Program-made: the position numbers and the translations under genes
From: Lyophyllum atratum
Lineage: Eukaryota; Basidiomycota; Agaricomycetes; Agaricales; Lyophyllaceae
Assembly (NCBI GenBank): GCA_014905825.1
Contig: JACGCN010000016.1
Coordinates: 806,001 to 870,000, forward strand
Direction of reading: 5' to 3'
Length of the DNA stretch: 64,000 nucleotides
In this document: positions 1 to 59,800 of the stretch, one piece after another
How the letters are laid out: every line of letters starts with the position of its first letter
How positions within the stretch are numbered: position 1 is the stretch's first letter
Notes under the pieces: generated by a model
Told to the model about the DNA's origin: nothing
Seen by the model: only the letters and a program-made list of their open reading frames with translations
Databases searched by the model: none

Positions 1-2904
1 TCTTCGTATACTCCGGGGTCCCCGATCTCCCACAGGTTTGTCCTCCCCACCTCCCATTAAGATTGGCCAATAACTAAAAACGGGCTCGTAGTTCTCAGGG
101 TTCATACGCACTTCTTGCATCGAACTTAGGTGGGCAACGGCTTCCTGACCAAAGGGCGTGCGTACTCTCGATACACTATCGTCCATCTTAAACTGACCTT
201 GTCTTCCTTCAGAATCATCGAAGAGGGAAGCGGCGGTATAACTTCGCAGCAGACGGCTACCCCTGAATCGAGGTGGGCTTCACACACAATTCTCGCCCTC
301 CTCCGCTCATCATAACGTCGAAACAGTCCATTCGCTCGAACGAACCCTCGCTACACGAACCCTGTGACGCCCAAATACAAGTATGTTTCTTCTGAAGAAT
401 GCAGGCACCGTCTTGAATATGTATTGGTCTAGTCGATCTCCTTTTGATATGGAAACCGCGATGCCGAAGGGCAAGCATACGTAGTGAGTTGTCCAGTCAC
501 GTTAATCATGTTTTCTGAACGTTCTCTGTTAGCGCGCCATTCGAAACCCCAATGTCTTCCTCTTCACTTGCTCCAGCGCACCGCATCTCCTCCCCAGTTT
601 CTTCTCCGTCGGAATCCCGCTCTTCCCGCTTATCGTCACCCTTCATGGCAAAGTTGTCCATTGCCGAACCAAATCTCAAATTAAAGTCCACAATTCGATC
701 CCGACCTCAATCACACACACCAGAACCTCATACTATGCAGGTCGACGACGTATTTTCTCCCTCTGCCATTGCCACCTCTAGACATTCAAATCCGCCCGCT
801 ACGTCGTTATCACCGTCCAGTTCCAGTCCGCCGTCTGTATCGCCTCCCATACCCGCTGCAGGAGGCGAGATGGAACGTATCCGCCAATCTATGATGCAGG
901 ACCGATTAGCCCACTTCCAAGAGGCTGAAAGCCGGCGGCCAGAGTACTTGAAACGAGCAAAGCGGACTCTTTCAGAGGCGGACCCGACCGCCCCTGCAGA
1001 GGGTGAGAGTATGAGAGAGAAAGAGCCAGAAGCAGTCGTTGGTATCATGGAAAGTCCGATGAAAGGAAGAAGGTTGAAGCTGTTTCAAGAGACGTCAGAG
1101 GAAAGTTTTGAAGAGAGTCTGATGGCCGGTGGATATGGTCGCTATGTAAGATCAAGTTATTTACCTTTCCACCTGGTGATTAGTCCGATTTAACGTCCGC
1201 GTCTCACAGAGAACTGCTGATTGGGTCCGCCAACCACAGCCAATTCTGCTGGCGACTCCTGGATCTGCAGGACCCTCGAATATCATATCAGCACTTGAAC
1301 AGGCTGAGGAGCCGGCTCCGCCGACGGAGAGAGAAATCAAGAAACGCAAGAGACTAGCCGCCTTTGGTGAGCGAACCTACGCTGATGGACCCACAACGAA
1401 GCTGCACCCAGTAGAGCTGGAAGGTCGTGGACGTGTTCTCTTGGACCTCCCTGCTGAAGGAGAAGATGTTTCTGTGATGGAAGGCGGGCCTCCGAAGAAG
1501 AAAGGCGGTACCCAACGAAAGAAGAAAGGGGAGTTAACCGCAAGGGAGAAGAAAGCTCTCGCTCTCGCGGCTGCGGCGGCAGGAGATCTCCCGGAGAAGC
1601 CGAATTGGCCGGATGCTGAGTTCCCATGGCGGCTGAGGACTGAAGAGCGGGCGGAGGAGCTTAAAGCGGAAGAAACAGAAAAGATGAAGTGGATAGAGAG
1701 GTTCCTGGATCGTGATTCGGATGATGAGGAGGACGATGGAGTCATGGCAGGTGGACACAAGGATCCTTGGGGAGTGTTCAGCGATGATGCACCGCCTGTA
1801 AGAGGCCGTGGCAAGATGGTTCCACTTCCTGAAAATCCTGGCCGAAACTTTCATCTGCGGAAGAGAAGCGCATTCTTTCCTAGTGATCCCGCGGATGCGC
1901 GTGCAGCCTTAATGTCAAAGAAGAGCGTTCGAACATTGTCTTATCGGCAGCAGAAGAGACAAAGGCAGCAGGCTGAGGATGAGAGTGACGAAGAGATCCT
2001 GTGCGTCTGCAACGGGAGGGACGACGGACGGGAACTGGTGCAGTGCGATGGGTGCGAGACCTGGTATCATCTGCAGTGCATAGGGATCAAAGATATCGCG
2101 CAGTTGGGTAAGGAGGAGGACCCGTGGTTCTGCCGCGTATGCAAGTCTCGTGGATCGCCCTCCTCGGAACCAGAGTTGTCAAGTGAGCCGACGTTCGTTC
2201 CTACCGATGACCGACCACGCGTGAGCCCTTCCTATGATGCGCCGTTCTTTCAACCATCATCTCTGCAAGACTCGCCCATGGCTTGGCACCCACCGACAAT
2301 GCCACGGACACCAACACGAAACCGAGATGCTGGATATGACCCCGGATTATCTTCTGGGTCATCCTGGGTGGAGTCATCGAGGCCTAGACCATCGACTCCT
2401 CAATATCCTGCGCACGGAGTTAGGGTGTACACCACAAGTACACCTAGTTCTTTCGACAACTACAACCATCCATACGACGAATCACCGTTTGACCCCACCT
2501 CCACTCCTTCCCGAGGAATCAGGTTCGGCGCTCCTTTTGCAACGCCGAAGAACAATGTTTGGGCGTCGCGAGCGAATGGCCTTTTTCAGACTCCATCGAA
2601 GGCTACTAGTGGACGTAGCTTGCCGAATAGGACTTTTGGAGGTCCTGGAACGCTTTCCTCAGCCCTGGACGATAGTAGTGGCGGACACAATGGTGGATCG
2701 GTGTATGAGCGGACTTACCCTGATGAAGACTCACCCATCAGACGCGTAGGCGGTGGTGGCGGTCCAAAGGCGCGACGTATCATGGATTCACCATTAGCAT
2801 CGCGTTCAACCATGTCTATATCCCACCATCTAGAGGAGTCGCCAATCATGCGCTATAACGACATTGAAAGGCGTCACGATCTGGGTTATGGCTCCATGCA
2901 ATGA
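1..2904 (+). CDS. PHD-finger protein, 5' end outside window
   Basis: Predicted chromatin reader of unknown target. A C4HC3 PHD finger lies near 2004-2145 (ILCVCNGRDDG, QCDGCETWYHLQC, WFCRVCKSR), with all eight metal ligands present. The finger is flanked by long Ser/Pro-rich tracts with many S/T-P sites and by a basic Lys-rich stretch just after 1490. The reading frame stays open through exons <1-35, 130-157, 213-272, 327-380, 433-480, 533-1145 and 1210-2904; each junction has GT/AG ends and matching phase. That gives 843 visible residues running off the left edge. A shorter model starting at the ATG at 552 is possible but leaves the well-formed small exons unexplained. No other domain was recognised. 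The PHD call is firm; the upstream exons are inferred from splice signals and frame. Confidence 0.85.
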
Positions 2905-18225: not shown

Positions 18226-20463
18226 TCATTTTTTGAGCCGTGTGGTCCTCCCGGTGCCCGCCCTCGAGTTCTCAAAACGCTTCCGTATCTCTGCGTAACC
18301 TCCGCGATCGACACGGTGGATGTAGTAGCTCCCGCCATTATTGCCCCAAGAAACACTGCCCGAGTGGTACGACCGTTCCGTTACGTCAAAGATTGCGCTA
18401 ATGTCATCGACCTAGTAGAAAAACACATCAGCTCAGAAAAAGGCGAGTTGTACAGGGCGGCAACCCACATTCCGCTCTGTGACACGTGCATTCAGCGACG
18501 ACACGAAAGGCTTGAGCGAGATAACGATTGCGCCTTCCTTGAGATCCAAGAATTTTGGCCGTAGCGCCTCATTCACTACCCAACAAATCCTTCTTAACAC
18601 TATAAAAAGACAGTAAACGTGAAACACTCACAGCTCTCCTCAAAGACCTTGTTATCCACCAATACCACGTCCGCCTGCGGAATGAGCTCGTTCACCCTAG
18701 GGCTCTCCAGCATATCTCCCTCCTCGAGCTCAATCTCCCCCAGCCTCACGCCCCACATCCGACAGCGCACCTTCAGATGCTCCTTCATCTCCCTTGCGAT
18801 CTTAGCTGGGCCGGGCATCAGCTCAATCCCATAGCTCCTACACCCCGTTTGGAGGCTTGCCTGCACACACACGTTGCCGACACCACTCCCGAGGTCCAGG
18901 AAGAGCGAGTCCTGGCTAAGCTTCGTGAGCTCGATCATCTCGTGTGCGAGGCTGGGCATGAGCTCGCCGTAGACGGTGCTCGAGAACGCCTCGTACTGCT
19001 TTAGGCTTTGGACATGCGGTCCAACACTGCGCTGGTAATTCTCCTCAATGATGCGCATGAGCACCTTCTTTGGCATCCCCGTATCACGCCACGACGCCAC
19101 GCTCTGCTTGAGACTGTTATTTGGAGCCCGGGAGAACAGGTCCTTGGGGATGGGCGGGTACTTGAGCGCTCGGATAAGCTGGTTTACCTCTGCCATGGCG
19201 CGGAGGAAGAGAGGCCCATCTTGGCGGTGGATGGCGCGCTGGACGGCACGGAGGACGGGCGTGGATGTGGCACGAGAATTGGAGGCGGAGGTTGCCGATG
19301 TGAAGGAAGAGAGGGAGGAAAGGCTGGAGTTGGGGGAGTCAACGGAGCTTAACGAGGAGGTGTATTCGGAGCCGGATGACTGTGAGTTTGGGGGCGAAGG
19401 GGACGGTGATGGTGGAGGGGAGACTGCTTCGGAGAGGGTTTCGTTGGGTATTGAGCCAAATGAGCTTTGTTGTGCGGGATTTAAATAACCTAGAAAAGCG
19501 GTCAGACGAGGGTCTTGATACAGTGGGTCGTGCGCACATTCTATGATGGTGTACAGTGATCTTTCTAGGTCCATGATTGGGTTGTAATGATCCTTGTCTT
19601 TAGGAGCAAGAAGAATAAATCTGCGTGGACGGGTCAGGATGAGTGTCATTGGATGCGCCACAGAGCATTTCCAGAACAGTGCAGACACTGGAAAGTCTCC
19701 TGGGCTAAGCCTGGCGATTGGAAATCCCACGCACCGTTCTACAGCGCCATTATTTGGATACTCCAATTCCGCGATGGGATAGTTTGTGGGGTGCGGTTTG
19801 AAAGAGTAGTCGCTCGCATCGTCGTGATTTTTGAAATCTAAAAAGTCAGGGAACGCGTGAGGGAGTGTATATACGCGACAGACATCCGGGATACCCACAA
19901 GGCTTGTATGATTTCATGAGGCGTTTGACGACCATTTCTGAGCTCAAATGGGAGGGGCCAGGCTCTCCATCCCTGGAACAGATCCATTTGCGGGGTATAG
20001 GCGGGGCGTCGTCGTCCCATCCGGGAAATAGAGAGGTAGAACGCGACCTACTACTGCGATAGATAGGTTCGGGAGATGGTGGAAGACTCTCCTGACGGCT
20101 TGGGGCGCGTGAATTGTGTTTGGAGGAGTGAGTAGACGGGTGCTTTCGCTGTCGACCTGCTTTCTTGGGGACAGAGGCACGCAGGCGCTTGACCTCGCGA
20201 GGCAGGTCGGCCACCTCTGGAGGGCTAGACTTGCGCTTTTTGAGGCTGGGTGGGCTAGAAAGAGGTGAGGAGTCTAGGCACGAGGAAGGCGTAGACTGAG
20301 GTCTGGAGACGGGGGAGCTGCGTTGCTGGGGAAGCGCGGGCCTATGGGTGATACGCGTCTTGACAACGACGGAGGACGTGGAGGCAATGGCATTGGAGAC
20401 CTTGGACGATGAGAAGAAGCTGAGGTCGGACGAGGAGGGGCGCGGGGGCGGCGTAGAGAGCAT
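18226..20463 (-). CDS. DOT1: Histone H3 lysine-79 methyltransferase DOT1
   Basis: Nucleosomal, S-adenosylmethionine-dependent methyltransferase acting on H3K79 in telomeric silencing and DNA-damage signalling. Five exons (20463-19899, 19837-19735, 19620-18632, 18575-18469, 18411-18226) give 649 residues with every phase matching. The N-terminal 190 residues are Ser/Pro/Lys-rich and disordered, as in fungal Dot1. The catalytic domain shows the D1 and SAM motifs: VYGELMPSLAHEM, FLDLGSGVGN, SYGIEL, VLVDNKVF. It continues with NEALRPKFLDLKEG, ISLKPF and SGSVSWGNNGGSYY, followed by a basic end (RLKK). A Ser/Pro/Thr-rich insert sits between the region around DLERSLYTIIE and the catalytic core. The start codon lies only 128 bp downstream of the neighbouring gene's stop, so the promoter is short or overlaps that gene. 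Confidence 0.96.
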
Positions 20464-22511: not shown

Positions 22512-25500
22512 ATGGCTAGATCTAGAGAGCCCCTACCGCGGCTCAGCCTCAACCCTCAGATGATCATGCCCCAGCCAGGCATGAATTATCAAGGACAGCC
22601 CATGTTCTCTCCCGCTTTACAAGGCTTCCATCCCCCTTTCCCCATGCCAAACGCCATGCAAACACCAATGCAGCCCGCTTTCTTCAATCCCCAGCCACCT
22701 CCAGCTCCAGGTCGTCCAACCCATCATCAAGGCCGCGCAAGCATTGCCCACCTAGCTGCCGCTGGCATCCATCCCCCAAACGGATTCCCTATGACACCCC
22801 TTGGCGGTCACTTCCCTCGGGCCTCTATGATGGGTATTCCCGGGCAGCCCTCTGCGCACCCATTCCCTAATAGAAATAGGCGGCAGCTAAGCATTGGTGG
22901 GCCTCCCAAGGCTGTTCTTGGCGGCCCCGCGCGCAAACTCAGCCCACTTCCCGTGGCTGCCGTGGCAGCAGCCTCACCCGCGCCCCAAAAGGTCAAGAAG
23001 ATCAATGTCAACCTCCCGAAAGAAACAATCCCCGGGGAGGATGGACAGCCTTCGACTCGGGCCGCGTGGGCACGGACGGTGCTTGATGGATTCGAGTACA
23101 AAGAACAAAACATCGCGCCTGTAGAATTGAACACGGCAGAGTCCTATCCTCCAGATGAATGGAGGAATCAAGTGCCCGCCACACTAGATGTCTTCCTGCC
23201 AGGAAAGGTTTGTTCTATGCTACCATTATCTTACGTTGTTAGCTGTCTGACGCATCATTCTTTCATAGCGTTCATGGGACGACATGAAACAAAAAGCGAT
23301 CGAGGAGAAACTAGAAAAACTAGGTGTTGAGCGGGGATCAGGCAGCAACGTGCCCCATATTCACGCGCCGCACGCCCGAGCAGCATCGGTAAATTGCTTT
23401 GTCACATACAACACGTGTATCAGCCCGTTGATCTGCCTTTTAGATATCTTCTCCTGCAGACCCCCAAATCCTGCTCTACAAGTTGAACAAGCTCCAGCAA
23501 ACGCAAGACGGTAGCGGTTCTGGCAATAACTCCCTCACAGCATCGCCAAATCCGCCCTTTGGCGTTCTCTCATCCTCGCCACACCGTCCCTCGCCGCGTT
23601 TTCTGACCAACCGCCACGGGCACACAATGTCTCTCGCGCCACCTTCCTCTCAATCCTTCTTTGACGGAGGGTCTGGCACGTTCGATCCCTTTGGCCCTAA
23701 CATCGAGCTCGAGGTCGAACCAATCCCATATTCCGGTCCCGACGCGCCACAGGAAGCTCTCTATGCACCCCAGGGACGCGCCCCAGTCTCATTGTCCTCC
23801 TTGGCTCCGCCACAAGTCTCGCGGCCTTCTAGTCGCCCTGACTTCACTCGTGGGTTCGGCCTGGACATCCCCGAAGAGGAGGAGGAAGCCGTGGAGGAGG
23901 AGCAGCTCCCGCAGGATACTGCTGGTGAGGAGCAGCAGGACTTAGAGTATACGCATGAAAACATGCATAGTGGTAACGGAACGGCCACCGCGTCTCAGAG
24001 TCGCTTCCATTCGCGTCACGTGTCGAGGTTGTCTGCGGCGTTATCGACGCGTTCTGCTGGAGCGCTTGATGACGAAGAGTTTATAGGAGAGGAAGATCTG
24101 GTGCCAGACGTGAACGTCGAGGAGGCTCAAGGTGGTGAGCAGGAAGACGTGGATTTGGAGGATGTTGTCGGAGAATGGACGGGCTCGGAAGATGTTTATC
24201 TCGAAGAAACTTCCGATGGAGAAGAGGTACGGCTTTTGGTTCTTGCCCACTTCAAAGTTATTCATAGGTTTATACTCAGAGTATCGGGGAATGGTCGAAT
24301 CCATCTGATGAAGAACGCGCGCGTAAGCAACGTCTCGAACGTCGCAACCGCCGTCGTGCCTCGCTGCAAATCGACATGCCAAGGCGCTTGCCGAATTTCC
24401 CTCGTCCACCGGACAATACTGTGGCCATGCGTATGGAAGACGACATGATCTCAAATCCAAGTGAGGAAGGCCGACACATGACGCACGGTGAATACCTTGG
24501 AATCGATTACTACTCGCGTCCCCCCTCCAATCTCAGCGGAACGTCTCGTCCACTCCCTCCTCTCCCCCATTCTCGTGTCGCCTCTGCTCAGCACACTGTC
24601 TATGACCCCGCCCACGCACACTCTCGCGCCACCTCTGATCAGTTCGTCTATCCCCAGCCACAGCCTGCCCAGCCGGCCTTTGCACCCCGCCGGGATTCCC
24701 TCAACCCCTTCGCCAAACCCTTTGTATTCGGTGCCGCGCGCGATTCCGGCTCCTGGGGCCAAGGCTCTGTTGACTTGAAACCACCTCAAGCTCCCATGCT
24801 AGGCCACACTCGCCTCCCCTCCCTAGGCAAGCCCCTCAACATCGCAGCACCTGAGTTTAAACCCGGCGGATTCACCTTCCGCCCACCTCCTGGTGTGCCT
24901 TCAATGCCCGCCCTACCCCAATCCGAAGCATCGAGGCCCCTGCCAGACGTCCCAGGAGAGGAATCCCCCTTCAAGGTACAAGGCCGCGAGAAGAGGCAGC
25001 GCCGTGGTTCGAGTGCGTCTATGGAGGAAGGCGACAGCATGACATCTTTCCGATTCCCTGGTAATCTGGAGTCTCCCCAGAGCATACGCCACGCCCCCGC
25101 TGCCCGCACCCATAAACTGAACCCCTCTGCCGAGCCGTTCACATTTGCAGGGTTTTCAGCTGTCGCCAACCTTCCCCGTGTTCCCAGAGAGTCCGAAGCT
25201 ACCGAGCTCGAGCCCGTTCCTAAAGCCGTCAGCGCCAGCCTTGAGGAGACGCTCGACGATGAGAGCACCGCGAAGGCCGAGAACGGCGAGGCTCGGGTCG
25301 AGGAATTCAGCCTACCCTCCGCGGCGAAGTCGAAGCGTGCACCAATCCCGCTGGACTTCAAGCATCCTGTCTCGAGCAACACCGTCCCTGCCGGCCTGTT
25401 CAAGGCTTTGGTGAATAACGGCGACGACCGCACTCGTAGGACTGTTCGCTCGCGTCTGAGCTCGCGGGAGATCTTCGAGCATAGCCACCTCCCGTCCATG

Positions 25501-28473
25501 GACGACTCGAATATTGCCCTCATTGCTAACCAAGTTAATCGAAGCCGGAGCCGGCTTGTCACAGACCCTGGACACCGGGAGCAAACCCCGACAAACGATG
25601 TCTTTGGCAGCGTTGCGAATCACCTCAGACGTCGCTCGTCGTTCACGGATGCCATCCGACCAAGCGGCCACCTTGCGAGCTCGGATGGTCGTCCTGATTC
25701 AGCAACCTCGGAGATGAGCCTCACTGGGCGTTTGGAGGTGCAGCAGTCAGAGCGCAGAATAGAAGCGATGCTCGAGGAAGGATTCGCGACCCTGCTTCGC
25801 GACATCAAGAGACAATCTGGCGAGCAGCATTCATCCGTACACACCATGATTTCCGAGATACAGTCACTCTTCCGGACGCAGCTTCGGGACTCTGCCGCTC
25901 GTAGCCTCGAGGCCACTCAGCTCGATGCACGTGGGGAATTAGACTTCCAACTCTTCAGAGACGTGGTAGAGGAATCGAACAAGGAGGTATTAGAAACCTT
26001 GAGGAATGACCTTCAGGAGCTCCAGCAGCAAGTTTGGCAGGCACGTTCCGGCGATGATGGATCCGCCGAAATCCTTCCCGCCGTGGAGAGACTGGGCAAC
26101 AGGACGATTAATGCAGTCATCGAAGCCATTTCTGAAATGTCGGCCCGCCAAGAAGCTATTGGCCATTCAGCACCCGCGCGCGAACGGGATGCCATTGTCG
26201 AAAACCTTATGACTGTCCTGACACCTGTCATGGCGTCCTTCCGGTCTGAACCCATCGACTATGAGTTCTTGACGAGCGAGCTCACTCAGGCCGTCAAGCC
26301 TCATATATCTCAGCTCATCGACCTGGCGTCGGACAAGCAAGAGACTGCTAATCTTATTATGAATCGTCTCATCCCCATGTTACCATCCTCAAATATCGAT
26401 ATCGACGCGATCACTCACCAGCTTACCACCGAAGTTCGCCGTGCAATTGCACCTATCGATGCGTTTGAAATCAAGGAACAAGTTGCTGATCTTGTTGTCG
26501 AGCGGCTCGACTCGCGCCTTGCAGTCCGGGACAAGGCGTTCAACATCGACAGCCTCTCAAGCAAAGTAATGGACAGCGTCTGGCGATCATTGGAGCCACT
26601 TCAAGGCATCCCAGCAGCCCTCGAACAACTCACGACTTCTCAAACGACTTACGCTGCCCATCAGGAACAGCTTTCGTCTTCTCAAGATCGTGTAACGAGC
26701 TTGTTGTTAGAGTTACCGGACAAACTCAGCCATGACCTGCGAAGCCTGGAGTCGACGCAGAAAGAAATCCTGTCGAAGTTGGAGCAGCCTCCTGTCACAA
26801 TTCCCGAACCGGACGCGAATGTACTCTCTGTCAAGGCCATCGTGGAGGAAATTTCGCTTGGCCAGAAGAGTATCGCCGCTCAGGCGGAAGATCTTGGCTC
26901 CGTTCACCATGCTATTCTCGAGAAGTTGAACGAGTTGCCTGAAATCTTCCAAACAGTCGCTGGCGCTATGCAGAATAGCCATGCTGAAATTTTTTCCTCC
27001 CAGGAAATATCGAAACACGAGTTGGAGGAGCTGCGGAAGGCGAACACCGATTACCAGGTCCAATTGACCAAGGCGCGTGCTGCGCATGGCCAAGTCCGCG
27101 TCGAGAAGGATGTTCTTAGCCAGAAGATCGGGACAATAGAAGCCGACCGCGATCGACTCCGCATACAGGTCAAAGAATCGCAGGCATCGAGTACGGAGAA
27201 AGTCAAGCAAATTGCCTCGCTGGAGGCTAGGAATAACGACCTAGAAGATGCCCTCGCGAAAGCTTTGGAACGTCTTCAGGCTTCTGATGTCGCTACTCAG
27301 GCCAACCGAGAACGTCTCGATGAGCTGGAGAGCAGTAATCGCGAGCTCGCAACGGAGAAGCTAGCTCTCAAGGCCAAGGTTTGTTACATGGTCTTCGCGA
27401 TTAATCTTATGCAGACTAATTTGTATCCTTCTAGGCTGATTCCCTTGACTTGCAAGTTACATTTGCTGCCCGTGATAAAGAGTCCGCGATGCGAGCATTG
27501 GAAAGACTCCAGCAACAGCATGATTACCTTGCATCTCAGCAATCCCACTGGGATGAGCTTCATCGTGCCTCTGAAAAGATTGAGATGCTAACCACGCTCA
27601 TCGGACAAGTTGACAACGAAGAGGTGAAGGACCTCCGACGTTATCGTGATCGCACAAAGGTTCTCGAAGGTGAACATGCTGCTCTTCAAAAGCGCTTCAA
27701 GGAGCAGGAGACGAAGATGGGCAACAACGAGCGGGCTACCGTAACTGCGAGGCAGAGTCTTGCCCAGGCACAACAACGTTCATCTGAATGGGAGCGTCGT
27801 GCTAAGGAGTTTGAAGGCCAGCTGGAGATGACGCAGACTAAGCTAGACCAGGCAGAGCAAACCCAGGCTCAATTGGATGCGGACTACTCTCTGGTCAAGC
27901 TGCAACTCGAAGAGCGGGAGGCTAATGATCGCCTATCTCAGGTACGCTCAGTGCTTATCATATTTCGTAAAGTAAAGCTAAGCATCCTTTTAGGATTCAC
28001 AGCACAAACTCGGAGAACAAGTATCCCTCTTGGAATCCAAAGTCACGCGCCTGCAATTCGAGCTTGAACAAGCCAAAACGGTGAAGGCCCCCGCTCCCCA
28101 GCCGTACCGGAACATCACAAATGGCAACGCACACCCGCTGCCCCGTCCTGACTCTCGTGCGAGTACCATCTACGATAATCGGGTTGCCACTCCCCAGAGG
28201 CGCATGCAATCTCAAGCATCAACCGCACGAAGCGACACCCCACCTTCGGCATCTGTCTGGGACTCTATGCATGCTCCAACTACTGACAAGTACAAATACC
28301 CGGCCCCTACGACCAATGTCCATGCGCCTCGCAGCCGTTACCCCGACCTTGGGCCTACGACGCCTAAGGCGCGCCGTCCTCAACAACAGCCATGGCGCGC
28401 TATGGCCCCTTCGCCCACCCCAAGCACTGTTTCCCTTGCTCCAACCCAGGGCGATGATGGCTGGTGGTCGTGA
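22512..28473 (+). CDS. Large coiled-coil protein of unknown function, 1894 residues
   Basis: Six exons (22512-23207, 23269-23388, 23444-24226, 24280-27378, 27435-27941, 27994-28473) join in phase 0 throughout. Residues 1-155 are Pro/Met/Gly-rich and low in charge, a likely disordered or condensate-forming segment. A conserved-looking block follows (KKINVNLPKE, STRAAWART, SWDDMKQKAIEEKLEKLG). Next come a Ser/Pro stretch, an acidic run (IPEEEEEAVEEEQ) and a basic cluster (RARKQRLERRNRRRASLQ). Roughly residues 930-1730 are helical, becoming a classic heptad coiled coil rich in Glu, Gln, Leu and Lys. The last 130 residues are again disordered, ending in GWWS. The architecture suggests a scaffold, polarity or cytoskeletal organiser, but no homologous domain was recognised. 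Confidence 0.8.
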
Positions 28474-41834: not shown

Positions 41835-44800
41835 ATGAGGGCCTTCACTCGAATAATTTCGCTGGTCGTTATCCTTGTGTTCTCATGGTCCCCAGGATAT
41901 GTGCATGGTAACATCTTTTTCGGTCCCTGATCTCCTTCCACAATCTCATATGATGATGTAGCTCATAGCGCCCCCGCCAGACCCTTGAAGCGTTTTGTCT
42001 ACCCTTCCACGCTTGCTCTTGAAATTCTACCTAGACAGGCTCCGCAATCCTCTTCCAGCCTACCGTTCAGCAAGCGTCTAGCAACTCCTGCAAGTACCCT
42101 TCGCCATGATGATACTTTCCGCCTCACGATATCTGCTTTCGACGAAACTTATTACTTGCACTTACGCCCCAACGATAACCTCATACATCCTGCAGCGCGC
42201 GTTAATTACTATTCCACCGACCCCTCTGGTCATTCATACGTGACCCACTCAGAGCCCCTTCTTCGTGAATCTGTCAAAGCCTACTGGGGCGAGGTAATCG
42301 CTGCCGCCCATACCGATGACCGCATGCGAGAAGATGCCGCAGGCGCTGTTCCCATGCCCCATCCATCCGAACTCGGATGGGTACGCATCATGGTCCACTA
42401 CCAGGGCGATATGGAACGAGGCATCCCGCCCGAGTTCGAGGGCGCTTTCTCTGTTCATGGGATCACTCACCACATCATGACCAAAGACAACTATCTCCGC
42501 ACTAAGAATGAGCTTGACCCCGACGTCTCTCAGCCCTTGGACGATGCTGACTCTTCCCTCATCATCTGGCGGGAATCCGATGTTATGACTGCGGAGGAGG
42601 AACGTGTTGCCAAGAGGGAAATTGCGCAGTCTAACCATCAGGCCCCCGCACGATCATGTGGCCACGACCGACTGAGATACAACACAGATCCTTTGCAGAA
42701 TCCCATCCTACAGAAGCCTCTCATTTCCGAGTCCTGGTTCAATAATCCTCTGGGCCTCTTCCAGAATGAGACCAAGCAGCGTAGGGATGATGTTAGCAAT
42801 GGAAATGGAGGAATGGGAACAAAGTCAGTTTGATTTGACTTCAACGTCGAATGGTTTGCCTTATACCTTAATCTAGCTTCATCAACAATATTGGTTCCCC
42901 TGACGGTTGCCCACTAACGCAGAAAGTGGTAAGTTTGAAGACGAACCGTCCCGCGTTCGAACGTCTCTTACTTCCCACAGCTCTTTATGGGTGTAGCTGC
43001 AGATTGTAACTATGTCTCTAAATATGGTGCGCAAGACAATGCCACCAGACAGATCTTGACGACCTGGAACTCTGCCAGCGCTCTTTACAAGGTTCGGGAC
43101 TACCACTCCCCTTCTGCCTTATGTCATCCTGACCCAATATCACTAGTCCACCTTCAACGTCAGCCTCGGTATCATCGAGGTTCAGGTACAAGGTCCAAGG
43201 TAGCTTTCAACCCCTTTTCTGCATTTTCAGCATCTGAGAAATATTTCAGCTGTCCAGCAGCTACAGATCCAGCCATTCCATGGAACATTCCCTGCAGTGG
43301 TGCGGAGCTGGATGCACGTTTATCGCTGTTCTCACAGTGGAGGGGGGATAAAGGCGATGACGGTGTCGGCCTTTGGCATCTGATGAGCGGATGTCCTACT
43401 GGATCCGAAGTTGGTATTGCATGGCTAGCTACCTTGTACGTTGCCGTCCACGAGCTTCGTCAATTTCCGCTCAACTTTCGATAGATGCCAGCAAGAGGCG
43501 ACGGGAAATGCCCCCTCGGTCGTATCCGGCGCGGCCGTATCAACAGCAGGTCGTACCGAGTGGCAGGTCGTCGCACATGAAATTGGCCACAATTTTGGCG
43601 CGATCGTACGTGATTTCAGACTTCATTGTATCCGAGTTCTAACACGGCGTCCTCCCAATGAATAGCACGATGTAAGTTCCAAGCTGCTTCTTTGCCATGG
43701 TTCTCCTCTCACACGTTCATCAGTGCGCAGATGGGTGCAATTCAGCCGATGCGTGTTGTCCGTTGAGTGGCACTGGAACATGCGATGCCAAGGCCCAGTT
43801 CATCATGAGCCCAGTCGCTCAGCCTGGAGAAAAAATATTCTCTCCCTGCAGTCTCGGGAACATCTGTAAGCTGACCTCCTATTGGCCCATGGTCTCTATT
43901 AACAGTACACTCTGTAGGTTCAGTGATGAAAGGCGTCGCAGGCGGACGCACCAACACCACATGTCTGGTTGACCCAGACCCAACACGGCAAACAATCTCG
44001 CTCCAGATGTGCGGTAACGGGATTGTCGAGAAGGGCGAGGATTGCGACCCCGGGAAGGGCGTGAATTCCACCTGTTGTGATACGGAGACATGCAAGTTCA
44101 AAAATAACGCCGTTTGTGACCCGGAGAGCAGCCCATGCTGCAACGCCCAGTGTTCCTTCGCACCGGCTACGCAAATCTGCCGGCCGTCCAGAGATGCTAG
44201 CTGCGACTCAGCGGAAATGTGCACAGGCAATTCATCTTCGTGCCCGGCGGATGTAGTTACGCCTAATGGTATTTATCGATGTCTCCATGTTGCCCTAAGA
44301 ATCGGCGAAACTCACATGTTAACTTCTTATCAGGTCAGAGCTGTGGGAGTGGTGACCTTAAATGTGCCAGTGGGCAGTGCACTTCAATTGCTCGTACGTG
44401 TCATATCGCGAAATGCTGGTACACCCGCTTGCAACCCGTAGCCTGACTCCCGATGTTTTTGTAGTTCAATGCCAGACCATTGGTGCGTCGATGGGGCTCA
44501 AGCAGGCCTGCCCCAATCGCAACGACAATAGCTGCCAGGTTTCTTGCCAAGACCCTAAAAGATCCAATCAGTGCATACTTCTAACATCCCTTCTTATCGA
44601 TGGCTCAACCTGTGGTGCGCATAGTTGATTATCTCCACTTATACATCTTTTCTCACCGCGTTGCCCTTTTCCGATACAGGCTACGGAGGAACTTGCGCGG
44701 CCGGCAAGTGCCAAGCAGCTAGCTTCCTCGACACAGCAAAGGTAAACACATCCACTTGGCGTTGTCCACGTCTAATCTATGCTAACTTGGCTTTAAAATT

Positions 44801-45309
44801 AAACTAGGCGTGGTATACCCAGAATCTGCAGATCGCTATACCCGTGACCATCGTCGCCGGGCTCATTACACTTCTTATTCTATGGGGAATTGCTAGAGGT
44901 CGGTTTCATTTGCTCTTGTAACGCGCCGCCCTGACGGTTTTATTTCTCTCTTTTCCCATCGCATAAAGCTATCGCGCGGTGTTGTGGATACCGTAAACCA
45001 GCCGCAGTTAGTCGGACTTCAGACCCGGCACTTGCTAGGACCCAGCACCAACGGATCGAAAGCTACGACAGGAATGGCGGCTATCCCACAGCGCCACCGA
45101 CCTTCCTGCCTCCTGGGACGCCTTCGTTCTTACAGCCAGCGAAGTATACTTACCAATCGCATTCTACTCCTTCATATCCTGATGTGCCTAGCGCTTCCTA
45201 CAGCCGTGTACCACCTGAACAGCAATACCCGCAATACCCGCAAGGTGGTGGAGGACGTGGTAATAATCACGGGAACTGGGTGGACGAGTCTACCTATAAT
45301 GGCCGATGA
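41835..45309 (+). CDS. Membrane-anchored ADAM metalloprotease
   Basis: Zinc endopeptidase of the M12B (adamalysin) family, type I membrane protein. Signal peptide MRAFTRIISLVVILVFSW is followed by a prodomain of about 270 residues. The catalytic domain includes LFMGVAADCNYV, VGLWHLMSGCPTGSEVGIAW and the zinc site HEIGHNFGAIHDC with catalytic Glu, then the Met-turn FIMSP. The third zinc-ligand His and following Asp come from a 6-nt exon (43666-43671). A disintegrin domain follows (CGNGIVEKGEDCDPG, then many cysteines), then a Cys-rich part, one membrane helix (IAIPVTIVAGLITLLILWG) and a Pro/Tyr-rich cytoplasmic tail. Exons are many and short. Fungal ADAMs are known; the substrate cannot be inferred. 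All catalytic residues are present. Confidence 0.92.
43666..43671 (+). other. 6-nt micro-exon in the ADAM gene (His-Asp)
   Basis: CACGAT is flanked by an AATAG acceptor and a GTAAGT donor, in phase 0, between introns 43606-43665 and 43672-43723. Including it completes the zinc motif HExxHxxGxxHD. Skipping it would keep frame but delete the third zinc ligand. Confidence 0.85.
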
Positions 45310-56871: not shown

Positions 56872-59800
56872 TCAAGACGACATGTTCTTCTCTGACGACG
56901 GGGAGGGTGTGTTCTTGGCAGGAGGTGACCTCGAGGATGTTGCCGGAGCGCCACCCTCCTTGGAACGTGATCGTGGTGAGATCGAGCGCTTCGAATCTAC
57001 CTGCATCCTGTCTTCGCGCTCTCGCTGATCGCGTTCACCTGGAGAGGGAACAGTGGAGGTAGGAGAGAGGGTCGCAATGGGCGGAAGCGCAATCGGTACC
57101 GAAGAGGCACCACCATGGGATGCCGATGATGACAAGCCCGCTCCAACAGGACGAGGATGGGGCGGAAGAACAGCAGGTAGGGTAGGGCTCGGCGGATAAG
57201 GATCGTGGGGCTGGCGAGCCTCGGGGGAGTGAGAAGGAGGGACAGCAGGGACAGGCTGTGTTCGGAAGGGGATAGGCGAAGGACGAGTGGAGGGGAGAGG
57301 GGTACCACGACCTGAGGGCGAGGATACGCGACGCTTGTTGTTGTCGATCCTTGAACGTTTGTTGTCAGACTCATCAGACCCAGGGCTGAGGGGACGCTTA
57401 AGAGAAGCTGCTTGTATTGGCGGTGAGACATGACTTCTCGTCGACGAGACGGAGTTACGATGCGACGGGGCGGGACGAGGAGAAGGGTGGCTGTGGCGAC
57501 TGCCGGATGAAATGGTTGGCGAATGTGAAGGCTCCACTGGTATCTGAGCTCCCGGAACACGGCCAGATGCCAGGCTCATCAAAGCGGCAGTGACCCCACC
57601 CTCGTCGTAGTCCTCATCGACGACTCGTGATGGCGGCCGCGCAGTCACGCTCGTAGGTGAAGGCTGGACGGACCTCGACGAACCTGACCCATTCGAACTG
57701 ACCTCTGGAGACCCAGGACCTTTCAAGTATGGACCAGGCATTTTGTACCCACCCATGTTTGAACTCGATAAACGATGCTCCCCGAGCCCGAATGGTTTCG
57801 GCGTCTCAGACTCGCGATCATCCTTGGGTCGTTTCGACGTGCGCTTCTTCCTCTGCTTCTGCGGCGCCTGTTCCTGAAGAGGGGTAGATACGGGAATGGG
57901 AGGTTCAGGCTCCTTATCCCTTGCGACACGGCGGCGACGCTCCTTGGGTTCTGACGGTCGTGGGCTTTCAGATCCCCGCGAGTTACTACCAACTATGGTA
58001 TGAGGCTGGGGGTTGCGGATTACATTCCTGGAGCTTTCCGGCGAGCCGCTGTAGTTTCGATCCTCGTACTCACGCTGTTCGCGGGGAGCGTCGTAGCGTG
58101 GGTCGTACCGGCGGCCGGCGGTCTCGTGTGGAGGGGGTGGCGGAGGAGGTGACGCCCTACCATGGGAGGAGTGTCCAGCCAGCGGTCCAGTCGGTGGCTT
58201 AGATTCCCAGTAGCGGCTGGGGTGTGGTCGCGGAGACGGTTCAGGAGGCGAGTGAGCCCTTAGATTACCCGAACTGGGGGATCTCGGAGGATAGAATGAA
58301 GATGGCTGAGACGTAGGAACGTATTCAGGGCCGTGCCTCGAACGCGTATCTCGCTCCTTTTCCCACTCCCGATGATCATTGGGTGCGGGACGACGGTCCC
58401 ATCCACCCTCCGACTCGATAGCGCGACCAGATTCATGCCTCGGATACATGCGAGGAGAGCGTTGTGATGGCACAGCGCTGGGCTGAGCAGGCCCCACCTG
58501 TTGACGGCTTGAAGAATAGCTCGGGAAAGGTGGCGGCGGTGGCGGTGGGGATCGTGCACGGACAGGGGCATGCGAATGCGGTGAGGGGGATCTCGACGAA
58601 GGGCGACCATTGCGTGTGAAGTAGGACTCTTGATGGTGGCCATGGGGGTCACTACGTAGCTCTTCAACACGAGCTTGCTGCTGTGGAACTGGGTGCTGAA
58701 GGAGAAGGCTTTGATGACCAACGGGTCCTCGCGCTGGTCCCTCGCGCGTCGGTGGGCCGGGGTAGTCACGACTATCTCGAGTCTCCCGAGTATGTGGCCT
58801 GTCGACGTCCATAGGAGCCAGCGGCGTATGAGACTGTGGATGTCTCGATTCATCTAAAACGACGGGCGGGGGAGGGCCACCTCGGAACGGTCCAGGTGAG
58901 GTATGACTCGCGCCAACCTGTGACGGTGGAGGGAGGGCGATGTCGTTCGGTGGTCCCCTTGAATCCGCTCGGAAAGCTGGGCGGTGGCTTGAAGATTGCA
59001 GAAGAAGGGGTGGTCCTGTAAGGCCGTGTGGCGGGACAACAGCGCTTGCGTATGCAGTGGGATGAACGTCCTGAGGACCAGGTGCCGCTGGCAATTGACC
59101 CCCAGTGGCTTGAGCAGTCTTCAACAATTGCAGTCTCTGGGAAATCGCCGGGTTGCTGGGATCGAGCTCGCTTGCCCTAGCGTAAGCATCGATGGCGTCC
59201 GAGATCTGGTTGTTGCAGCTTTCATACAAACTGCCGAGATCGAACCATACCTCGGAGATATAGGGGTTGATACGGATAGCGCGAGAGTAGGCATCAAGGG
59301 CGTCACGGAACTGGTTGATCTGGAAATATAGAACGCCGATCGAGCACCAGAACGTGGGGTTGCGACCATCACGGTACACTGCCTGCTGATATGCCTCGTA
59401 TGCCTTATTGTATTTTTGGCCCGCCATGTAAGCCCTGCCAAGGAGATACCAGCTCTGAGCATCTGATGGATCTGGAAAGGTAAATTGAGTTTCGATTGTA
59501 GTCTGAAGAAAGGGGCGAGGCTCACCTGCTTCAAGACTCTTTGTCAAGTACTGGATGGCAAGGTCCTGGTTTTGGAAGCTAGTGCCGTCTTGATGATACA
59601 GCCACCCAAGCTGCTGAAGTACCTTCGCGTGCCCGGGGTTATCTGCAACTACTCGTTCATATGCGTCTTTGGCACGAGCATGCTAAAGGTAGAAGAGTGA
59701 GTCAAAGCTAACTTTGTGACAAGCGAATACAGCACGTACGTCCTTCTGTTGCTCGTAAACATGACCGATCTGGAACCAAATATCGGCATGAGCGAGAGGG

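What the first reader, a model, noticed from the sequence alone, without database searches (positions are those of the whole stretch)
43606..43723. A 6-nt micro-exon supplies the third zinc ligand of an ADAM protease
The exon upstream ends HEIGHNFGAI and the exon downstream starts with Cys. Only CACGAT between two good introns (60 and 52 bp) completes HExxHxxGxxHD. Skipping the micro-exon stays in frame and would give a full-length but probably inactive protease. Alternative inclusion could therefore be an on/off switch, and the shortness makes skipping likely in some transcripts.
Basis: partly seen in the sequence, partly recalled or inferred. Interest (0 to 1): 0.75.

Follow-up and report, generated by a model that had tools for sequence, protein, structure and literature searches.

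The report
Six-base exon in fungal ADAM protease
A mushroom gene for an ADAM-type protease keeps two essential active-site residues on an exon only six bases long; the exon looks real and routinely used, and seems to recur in other mushrooms where gene-finding software often misses it, but there is no sign that cells switch it on and off.

Summary
CACGAT (43666-43671) lies between a 60-nt and a 52-nt GT-AG intron and supplies His-Asp of HEIGHNFGAI|HD|C in a 15-exon, 886-aa M12B/ADAM gene at 41835-45309. Of 8 two-intron solutions listed, only this gives HDC. The other haplotype keeps the exon and its splice dinucleotides.

Of 162 homologues collected, 144 carry His-Asp; 15 lack exactly these two residues and 3 continue with VS instead. 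All 18 bear annotation (ncbi) source tags; 30 of 30 transcript-like, short-contig proteins have HDC. An Armillaria luteobubalina gene model without His-Asp has a near-identical transcript-like partner with it. The micro-exon is therefore inferred in Agaricales, Russulales and Gloeophyllales.

The on/off switch is not supported: no transcript-like sequence lacks His-Asp. It is not excluded either: isoforms may hide in 90% clusters, and published Schizophyllum figures for coding-region exon skipping vary by method. Six-base exons are known in basidiomycete P450 genes. I read this as a constitutive catalytic micro-exon and an annotation trap. RNA from this organism was not available.

The parts
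41835..45309 (+). ADAM-like M12B metalloprotease gene, 15 exons / 14 introns, 886 aa conceptual product
   Evidence: open spliced frame; Pfam; homologues; alignment with P0001, without gaps from about residue 298 to 783
43485..43605 (+). exon 7, ends with ...VVAHEIGHNFGAI (zinc ligands 1 and 2, catalytic Glu)
43606..43665 (+). intron 7, 60 nt, GTACGT...TAG; branch-like CTAAC at 43639 (CTAAT in the allele)
43666..43671 (+). exon 8, 6-nt micro-exon CACGAT = His-Asp (third zinc ligand plus conserved Asp)
   Evidence: homologues
43672..43723 (+). intron 8, 52 nt, GTAAGT...CAG; CTCAC at 43708 is a possible branch site
43724..43865 (+). exon 9, starts with Cys of HDC; contains the Met-turn-like FIMSPV
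43918..44268 (+). exon 10, holds the disintegrin domain match (44028-44252)

Best explanation
CACGAT is a constitutive 6-nt exon. Two short, separately recognised phase-0 introns interrupt the zinc-binding motif of the only ADAM-type gene found in this genome (two haplotype copies), and both must be removed to give HEIGHNFGAIHDC, an active-type reprolysin site. The arrangement is inferred to be shared by mushrooms of at least three orders. The apparent 'skipped' versions in databases are most likely gene-prediction errors, not isoforms. Shown: the sequence, the open frame, the allele, and the pattern of losses in annotations. Inferred: use of the exon in this organism's mRNA, intron layout in other species, catalytic activity, and how the exon arose.
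For: Only 1 of 8 listed two-intron solutions gives HDC. Intact allele: 0 of 6 exon bases differ, while introns 7 and 8 differ at 7 of 110 aligned positions plus 2 gap columns; gene-wide mismatch is 2.2% in exons and 5.7% in introns. 144 of 162 homologues have His-Asp. The exact HD gap (15 of 162) is the commonest internal gap among 709 core alignment columns. 30 of 30 transcript-like proteins have HDC. P0043 (transcript-like) against P0057 (A. luteobubalina annotation): 746 of 760 paired residues identical, and through the catalytic domain they differ only by the missing HD. P0001, from a relative of this fungus on a 2917-nt contig, includes HD.
Against: No RNA from this organism. Transcript nature of the 30 is inferred from source tags and contig length; only 14 of 30 have less than 490 nt left outside the coding sequence. 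The protein set is clustered at 90% identity, so a two-residue-shorter isoform can hide inside a cluster. No genomic DNA of other mushrooms could be read (searches found none). The annotation/transcript contrast is weak as a statistic: Fisher two-sided p 0.067 for the set and 0.024 for+14, the second set being seeded with a skip-annotated protein. Junction reads in S. commune show many coding-region exon skips, and authors of PMC1184071 think micro-exons promote alternative splicing.
Confidence: 0.86

Rival explanations
1. Regulated micro-exon switch: skipping yields a full-length protein with a dead or altered (HExxHxxGxxC) site, used to tune activity or as a decoy.
For: Skipping is in frame and phase 0. 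15 annotated proteins have exactly this form. A fungal micro-exon switch is reported for Xlr2 in Trichoderma virens (PMC11121469). Junction-read analysis in S. commune counts 1,527 exon skips in coding regions (PMC5034255). PMC1184071 proposes that micro-exons promote alternative splicing.
Against: 0 of 30 transcript-like proteins lack His-Asp. The Armillaria model that lacks it has a transcript-like partner that has it. By transcript assembly exon skipping is 1% of coding-region events in S. commune. The joined 118-nt intron would be longer than all 14 introns of this gene (49-71 nt).
Confidence: 0.09
2. Not an exon: the real transcript loses His-Asp or uses another acceptor, i.e. the gene is a pseudoprotease or pseudogene.
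For: Gene models of 15 of 162 homologues look like this.
Against: Whole frame open on both haplotypes, with exons more conserved than introns. His-Asp in 144 of 162 homologues. No other listed two-intron solution gives HDC.
Confidence: 0.03
3. Inefficient rather than regulated inclusion: a minor fraction of skipped or intron-retaining noise transcripts, without function, beside the included form (compatible with the best explanation). Retention of intron 7 would stop at its own in-frame TAG acceptor.
For: The in-frame TAG at the end of intron 7 is visible in the frame. Intron retention is the commonest event in S. commune.
Against: No transcript-like protein here lacks or interrupts HDC, but proteins broken by a stop would hardly be retrieved as full-length homologues.
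Confidence: 0.3

Closest known systems
Micro-exons of basidiomycete cytochrome P450 genes (Phanerochaete chrysosporium; PMC1184071, passages read; 8-nt exon inside the AGHETT motif cited in PMC12940212, passages read)
   Same: Exons as short as 6 bp (2 aa) between small introns, in a basidiomycete; some sit inside conserved active-site motifs
   Different: Different enzyme family; here the exon encodes a metal ligand of a protease
Xlr2 switch micro-exon of Trichoderma virens (PMC11121469, passages read)
   Same: Fungal micro-exon in a functionally essential segment, missed by the consensus gene model
   Different: 20 nt, reported as glucose-dependent and experimentally followed; no sign of regulation found here
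Single-nucleotide exon of CYP621A in Fusarium (PMC12940212, passages read)
   Same: Tiny exon completing a conserved motif, found by comparison with homologues and prone to misannotation
   Different: Omission there breaks the frame; here it keeps the frame, so the error is silent
ADAM/M12B proteases (ADAM17 8snm, snake factor X activator 2e3x)
   Same: HExxHxxGxxHD motif and disintegrin domain align
   Different: Fungal protein; the split of the motif by introns was not compared with animal gene structures

Membership tests
ADAM / M12B (reprolysin) metalloprotease | Zinc motif HExxHxxGxxHD | tested here: met
   HEIGHNFGAIHD when exon 8 is included; aligned to HELGHNFGAEHD of ADAM17
ADAM / M12B (reprolysin) metalloprotease | M12B catalytic-domain profile | tested here: met
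   Reprolysin_5 E 1.1e-44, Reprolysin_4 2.2e-40, Reprolysin_2 9.8e-40
ADAM / M12B (reprolysin) metalloprotease | Propeptide and disintegrin domain | tested here: met
   Pep_M12B_propep E 4.9e-5 (24.3 bits against a cut-off of 23.7), Disintegrin 1.5e-16
ADAM / M12B (reprolysin) metalloprotease | Met-turn after the zinc motif | tested here: inconclusive
   FIMSPV follows in exon 9; M498 and P500 are invariant in the 56-sequence alignment; geometry not examined
ADAM / M12B (reprolysin) metalloprotease | Membrane anchor | not tested
   Hydrophobic stretch LQIAIPVTIVAGLITLLILWGIARAI is visible; long helix 732-761 in the P0043 model; no predictor run
ADAM / M12B (reprolysin) metalloprotease | Proteolytic activity | not testable with these tools
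   -
Micro-exon (about 3-30 nt, spliced into mRNA) | Very short exon with canonical splice sites on both sides | tested here: met
   6 nt, TAG|CACGAT|GTAAGT, on both haplotypes
Micro-exon (about 3-30 nt, spliced into mRNA) | Present in mature mRNA | tested here: inconclusive
   Supported in relatives: 30 of 30 transcript-like proteins have HDC; no RNA of this organism
Switch-like alternative micro-exon | Both included and skipped mRNAs exist and change with condition | tested here: inconclusive
   No skipped form among 30 transcript-like proteins, but 90% clustering could hide some; no condition-resolved data

The most novel reading that the evidence does not exclude
An in-frame-skippable exon, conserved across orders of mushrooms, is used to make a second ADAM isoform in which Cys replaces the third zinc His (HExxHxxGxxC), giving a latent, redox-sensitive or decoy protease in some tissue or stage not sampled here.
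Probability: 0.07. Interest if true: 0.8.

Novelty: new member of a known kind. Interest (0 to 1): 0.4.

Why it matters
It shows a catalytic metal ligand carried entirely by a 6-nt exon, with indirect evidence that this layout is shared by mushrooms of at least three orders. Because skipping keeps the frame, automatic gene models fail silently: 18 of the 162 homologues collected lack the ligand pair and could be read as dead proteases or lineage-specific losses. The gene, with one copy per haplotype found, is a clean test case for micro-exon-aware annotation and for how a spliceosome working on short introns handles a 6-nt exon.

Tried and rejected
Genomic DNA of other mushrooms: alignment A1 scanned against viral contigs and genome contigs gave no relative, and no relatives of the own genome are held (note), so intron layout in other species rests on protein evidence only. 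Paralogue comparison: no second ADAM gene at E <= 0.001, only the two haplotype copies. Structure: AlphaFold2 models of P0043 (with HD) and P0057 (without) gave mean pLDDT 67.8 and 63.5. Around the motif the ten-residue blocks read 63 and 65 (residues 451-470 of P0043) against 49 and 45 (411-430 of P0057), but all are low and P0057 lacks other segments too, so I do not lean on it. No fold search was run. Literature: no paper in the held library has microexon + ADAM + metalloprotease + zinc-binding together (one search). Papers whose passages I saw: PMC12940212, PMC11121469, PMC5034255, PMC1184071, PMC3990503; of the others only listings with the starts of abstracts.

Dropped before counts: of 1387 homologues and 653 only the best 120 each were listed; one search listed 49 of 49. 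P0153 and P0159 (jgi and lgn, both HDC) were not in that count, nor were P0123 and P0133 (short contigs but ncbi source, both HDC) or P0112 (mixed sources, long contig, HDC).

Full report
Observation. The window carries one M12B/ADAM gene on the + strand, 41835-45309. Joining 15 exons at GT-AG sites gives an open frame of 886 aa with Reprolysin, Disintegrin and M12B propeptide matches. Exon 7 ends HEIGHNFGAI at 43605. The next exon is CACGAT (43666-43671, His-Asp), and exon 9 starts TGC (Cys) at 43724. The introns are 60 and 52 nt, and the boundaries are phase 0.

Chance and alternatives. AG-CAYGAY-GT occurs once in the window, at this site, with 0.41 expected over both strands in shuffles. 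Listing canonical solutions with introns of at least 40 nt gave 13 one-intron and 8 two-intron cases; only one, the micro-exon, gives HDC (for 3 of the 13 the donor lies before the motif and the frame was not checked). Intron 7 has a CTAAC branch-like site 23 nt before its end. Retaining intron 7 would stop at its own in-frame TAG.

Second haplotype. The assembly (64.76 Mb) holds a second copy on contig C70. A 16.8-kb aligned block around the gene is 96.5% identical, so I read it as the allele. In this copy the exon and all four terminal dinucleotides are unchanged, while introns 7 and 8 carry 7 mismatches and 2 gap columns in 112 alignment columns. Gene-wide mismatch is 2.2% in exons and 5.7% in introns. 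Apart from these two copies, no disintegrin or Reprolysin_5 match at E <= 0.001 was found in the genome.

Homologues. Three searches returned 162 distinct proteins. Of these, 143 have HDC, 1 has HD followed by VGAN then C (P0034), 15 go directly from GAI to C, and 3 continue VS... (P0021, P0069, P0098). VS directly after GAI fits read-through of a GTNAGY donor, and VG after HD fits a GTNGGN donor; this is inference, since their DNA was not seen. In an alignment of all 162, the exact HD gap is the commonest internal gap among 709 core columns (15 of 162); the next are a one-residue gap at window residue 266 (13) and one at 544 (11), and the next commonest two-residue gaps (7 each) lie in the propeptide region. 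A loss of exactly two otherwise near-invariant residues is expected if a gene finder jumps a 6-nt exon, and hard to explain otherwise. The 15 come from Agaricales, Russulales and Gloeophyllales (names; orders looked up for four species, the rest recalled).

Transcript-like proteins. Thirty proteins have only 'lgn' or 'jgi' sources and contigs of 1.9-7.3 kb; all 30 have HDC. I infer that most come from assembled RNA, because the gene here has 14 introns and such continuous proteins would not be read from unspliced DNA; the meaning of the tag 'lgn' is a guess, and intron numbers in those species are unknown. Fourteen of the 30 leave under 490 nt outside the coding sequence. The best pair is P0043 (3092-nt contig, HD present) and P0057, the Armillaria luteobubalina annotation (HD absent). 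They share 746 of 760 paired residues, and through the catalytic domain the alignment differs only by the missing HD. P0001, 83% identical to the window protein over the aligned length and on a 2917-nt contig, also includes HD. All 18 proteins lacking HD bear ncbi source tags and lie on contigs of 59 kb or more, so I take them as genome annotations. The contrast is Fisher two-sided p 0.067 alone and 0.024 added; the latter search was seeded with a skip-annotated protein.

Function. Including the exon gives HEIGHNFGAIHD, which aligns with HELGHNFGAEHD of ADAM17. Skipping would place the following Cys at the third-ligand position (H422 and C432 in P0057 against H460 and H470 in P0043). Whether such a form binds zinc or has any activity is unknown. 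AlphaFold2 models of the two were of low confidence around the site and are not used as evidence.

The switch hypothesis. Nothing here shows a skipped mRNA. In S. commune, by transcript assembly, exon skipping is about 1% of coding-region events and intron retention is the commonest event; [quoted passage not shown] PMC1184071 suggests that P450 micro-exons may promote alternative splicing. The hypothetical joined intron of 118 nt exceeds all 14 introns of this gene (49-71 nt). Clustering at 90% identity could hide rare isoforms. The switch is therefore unsupported rather than excluded; I put it at 0.09.

Known context. Six-base exons and widespread micro-exons are described in P. chrysosporium P450 genes (PMC1184071), an 8-nt exon in the AGHETT motif and a 1-nt exon in Fusarium CYP621A in PMC12940212, and a regulated 20-nt exon in Trichoderma Xlr2 (PMC11121469). 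The present case is a new member of a known kind; its special point is that it carries a catalytic metal ligand and fails silently in annotation.

Noticed in passing
window left of 33489 against G000:C70 433500-440275: The window matches C70 at 82-97% from 33489 to 56341 (C70 440276-463269, close to the end of the 30 kb fetched), but the 6.8 kb of C70 to the left found no match in the window at E 1e-10, suggesting a structural difference between haplotypes on that side.
   Followed up: partly
window 43606-43665: Reading through intron 7 stays open until the TAG of its own acceptor, so retention would truncate the protease just after the second zinc ligand.
   Followed up: no
P0140 (Antrodiella citrinella, 1205 aa): This annotation joins the ADAM domains with a P450 domain (PF00067), perhaps a fused gene model.
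   Followed up: no
window 18600-19898 (-): ORF with a DOT1 histone methyltransferase match, E 7.4e-44.
   Followed up: no
window 1441-2904 (+), 24376-27591 (+), 56872-59547 (-): ORFs with PHD-finger, PAM2 and TPR matches respectively.
   Followed up: no
P0034 (Mycena venus): Annotation keeps HD but adds VGAN before Cys, as if the donor after the micro-exon had been misplaced.
   Followed up: partly
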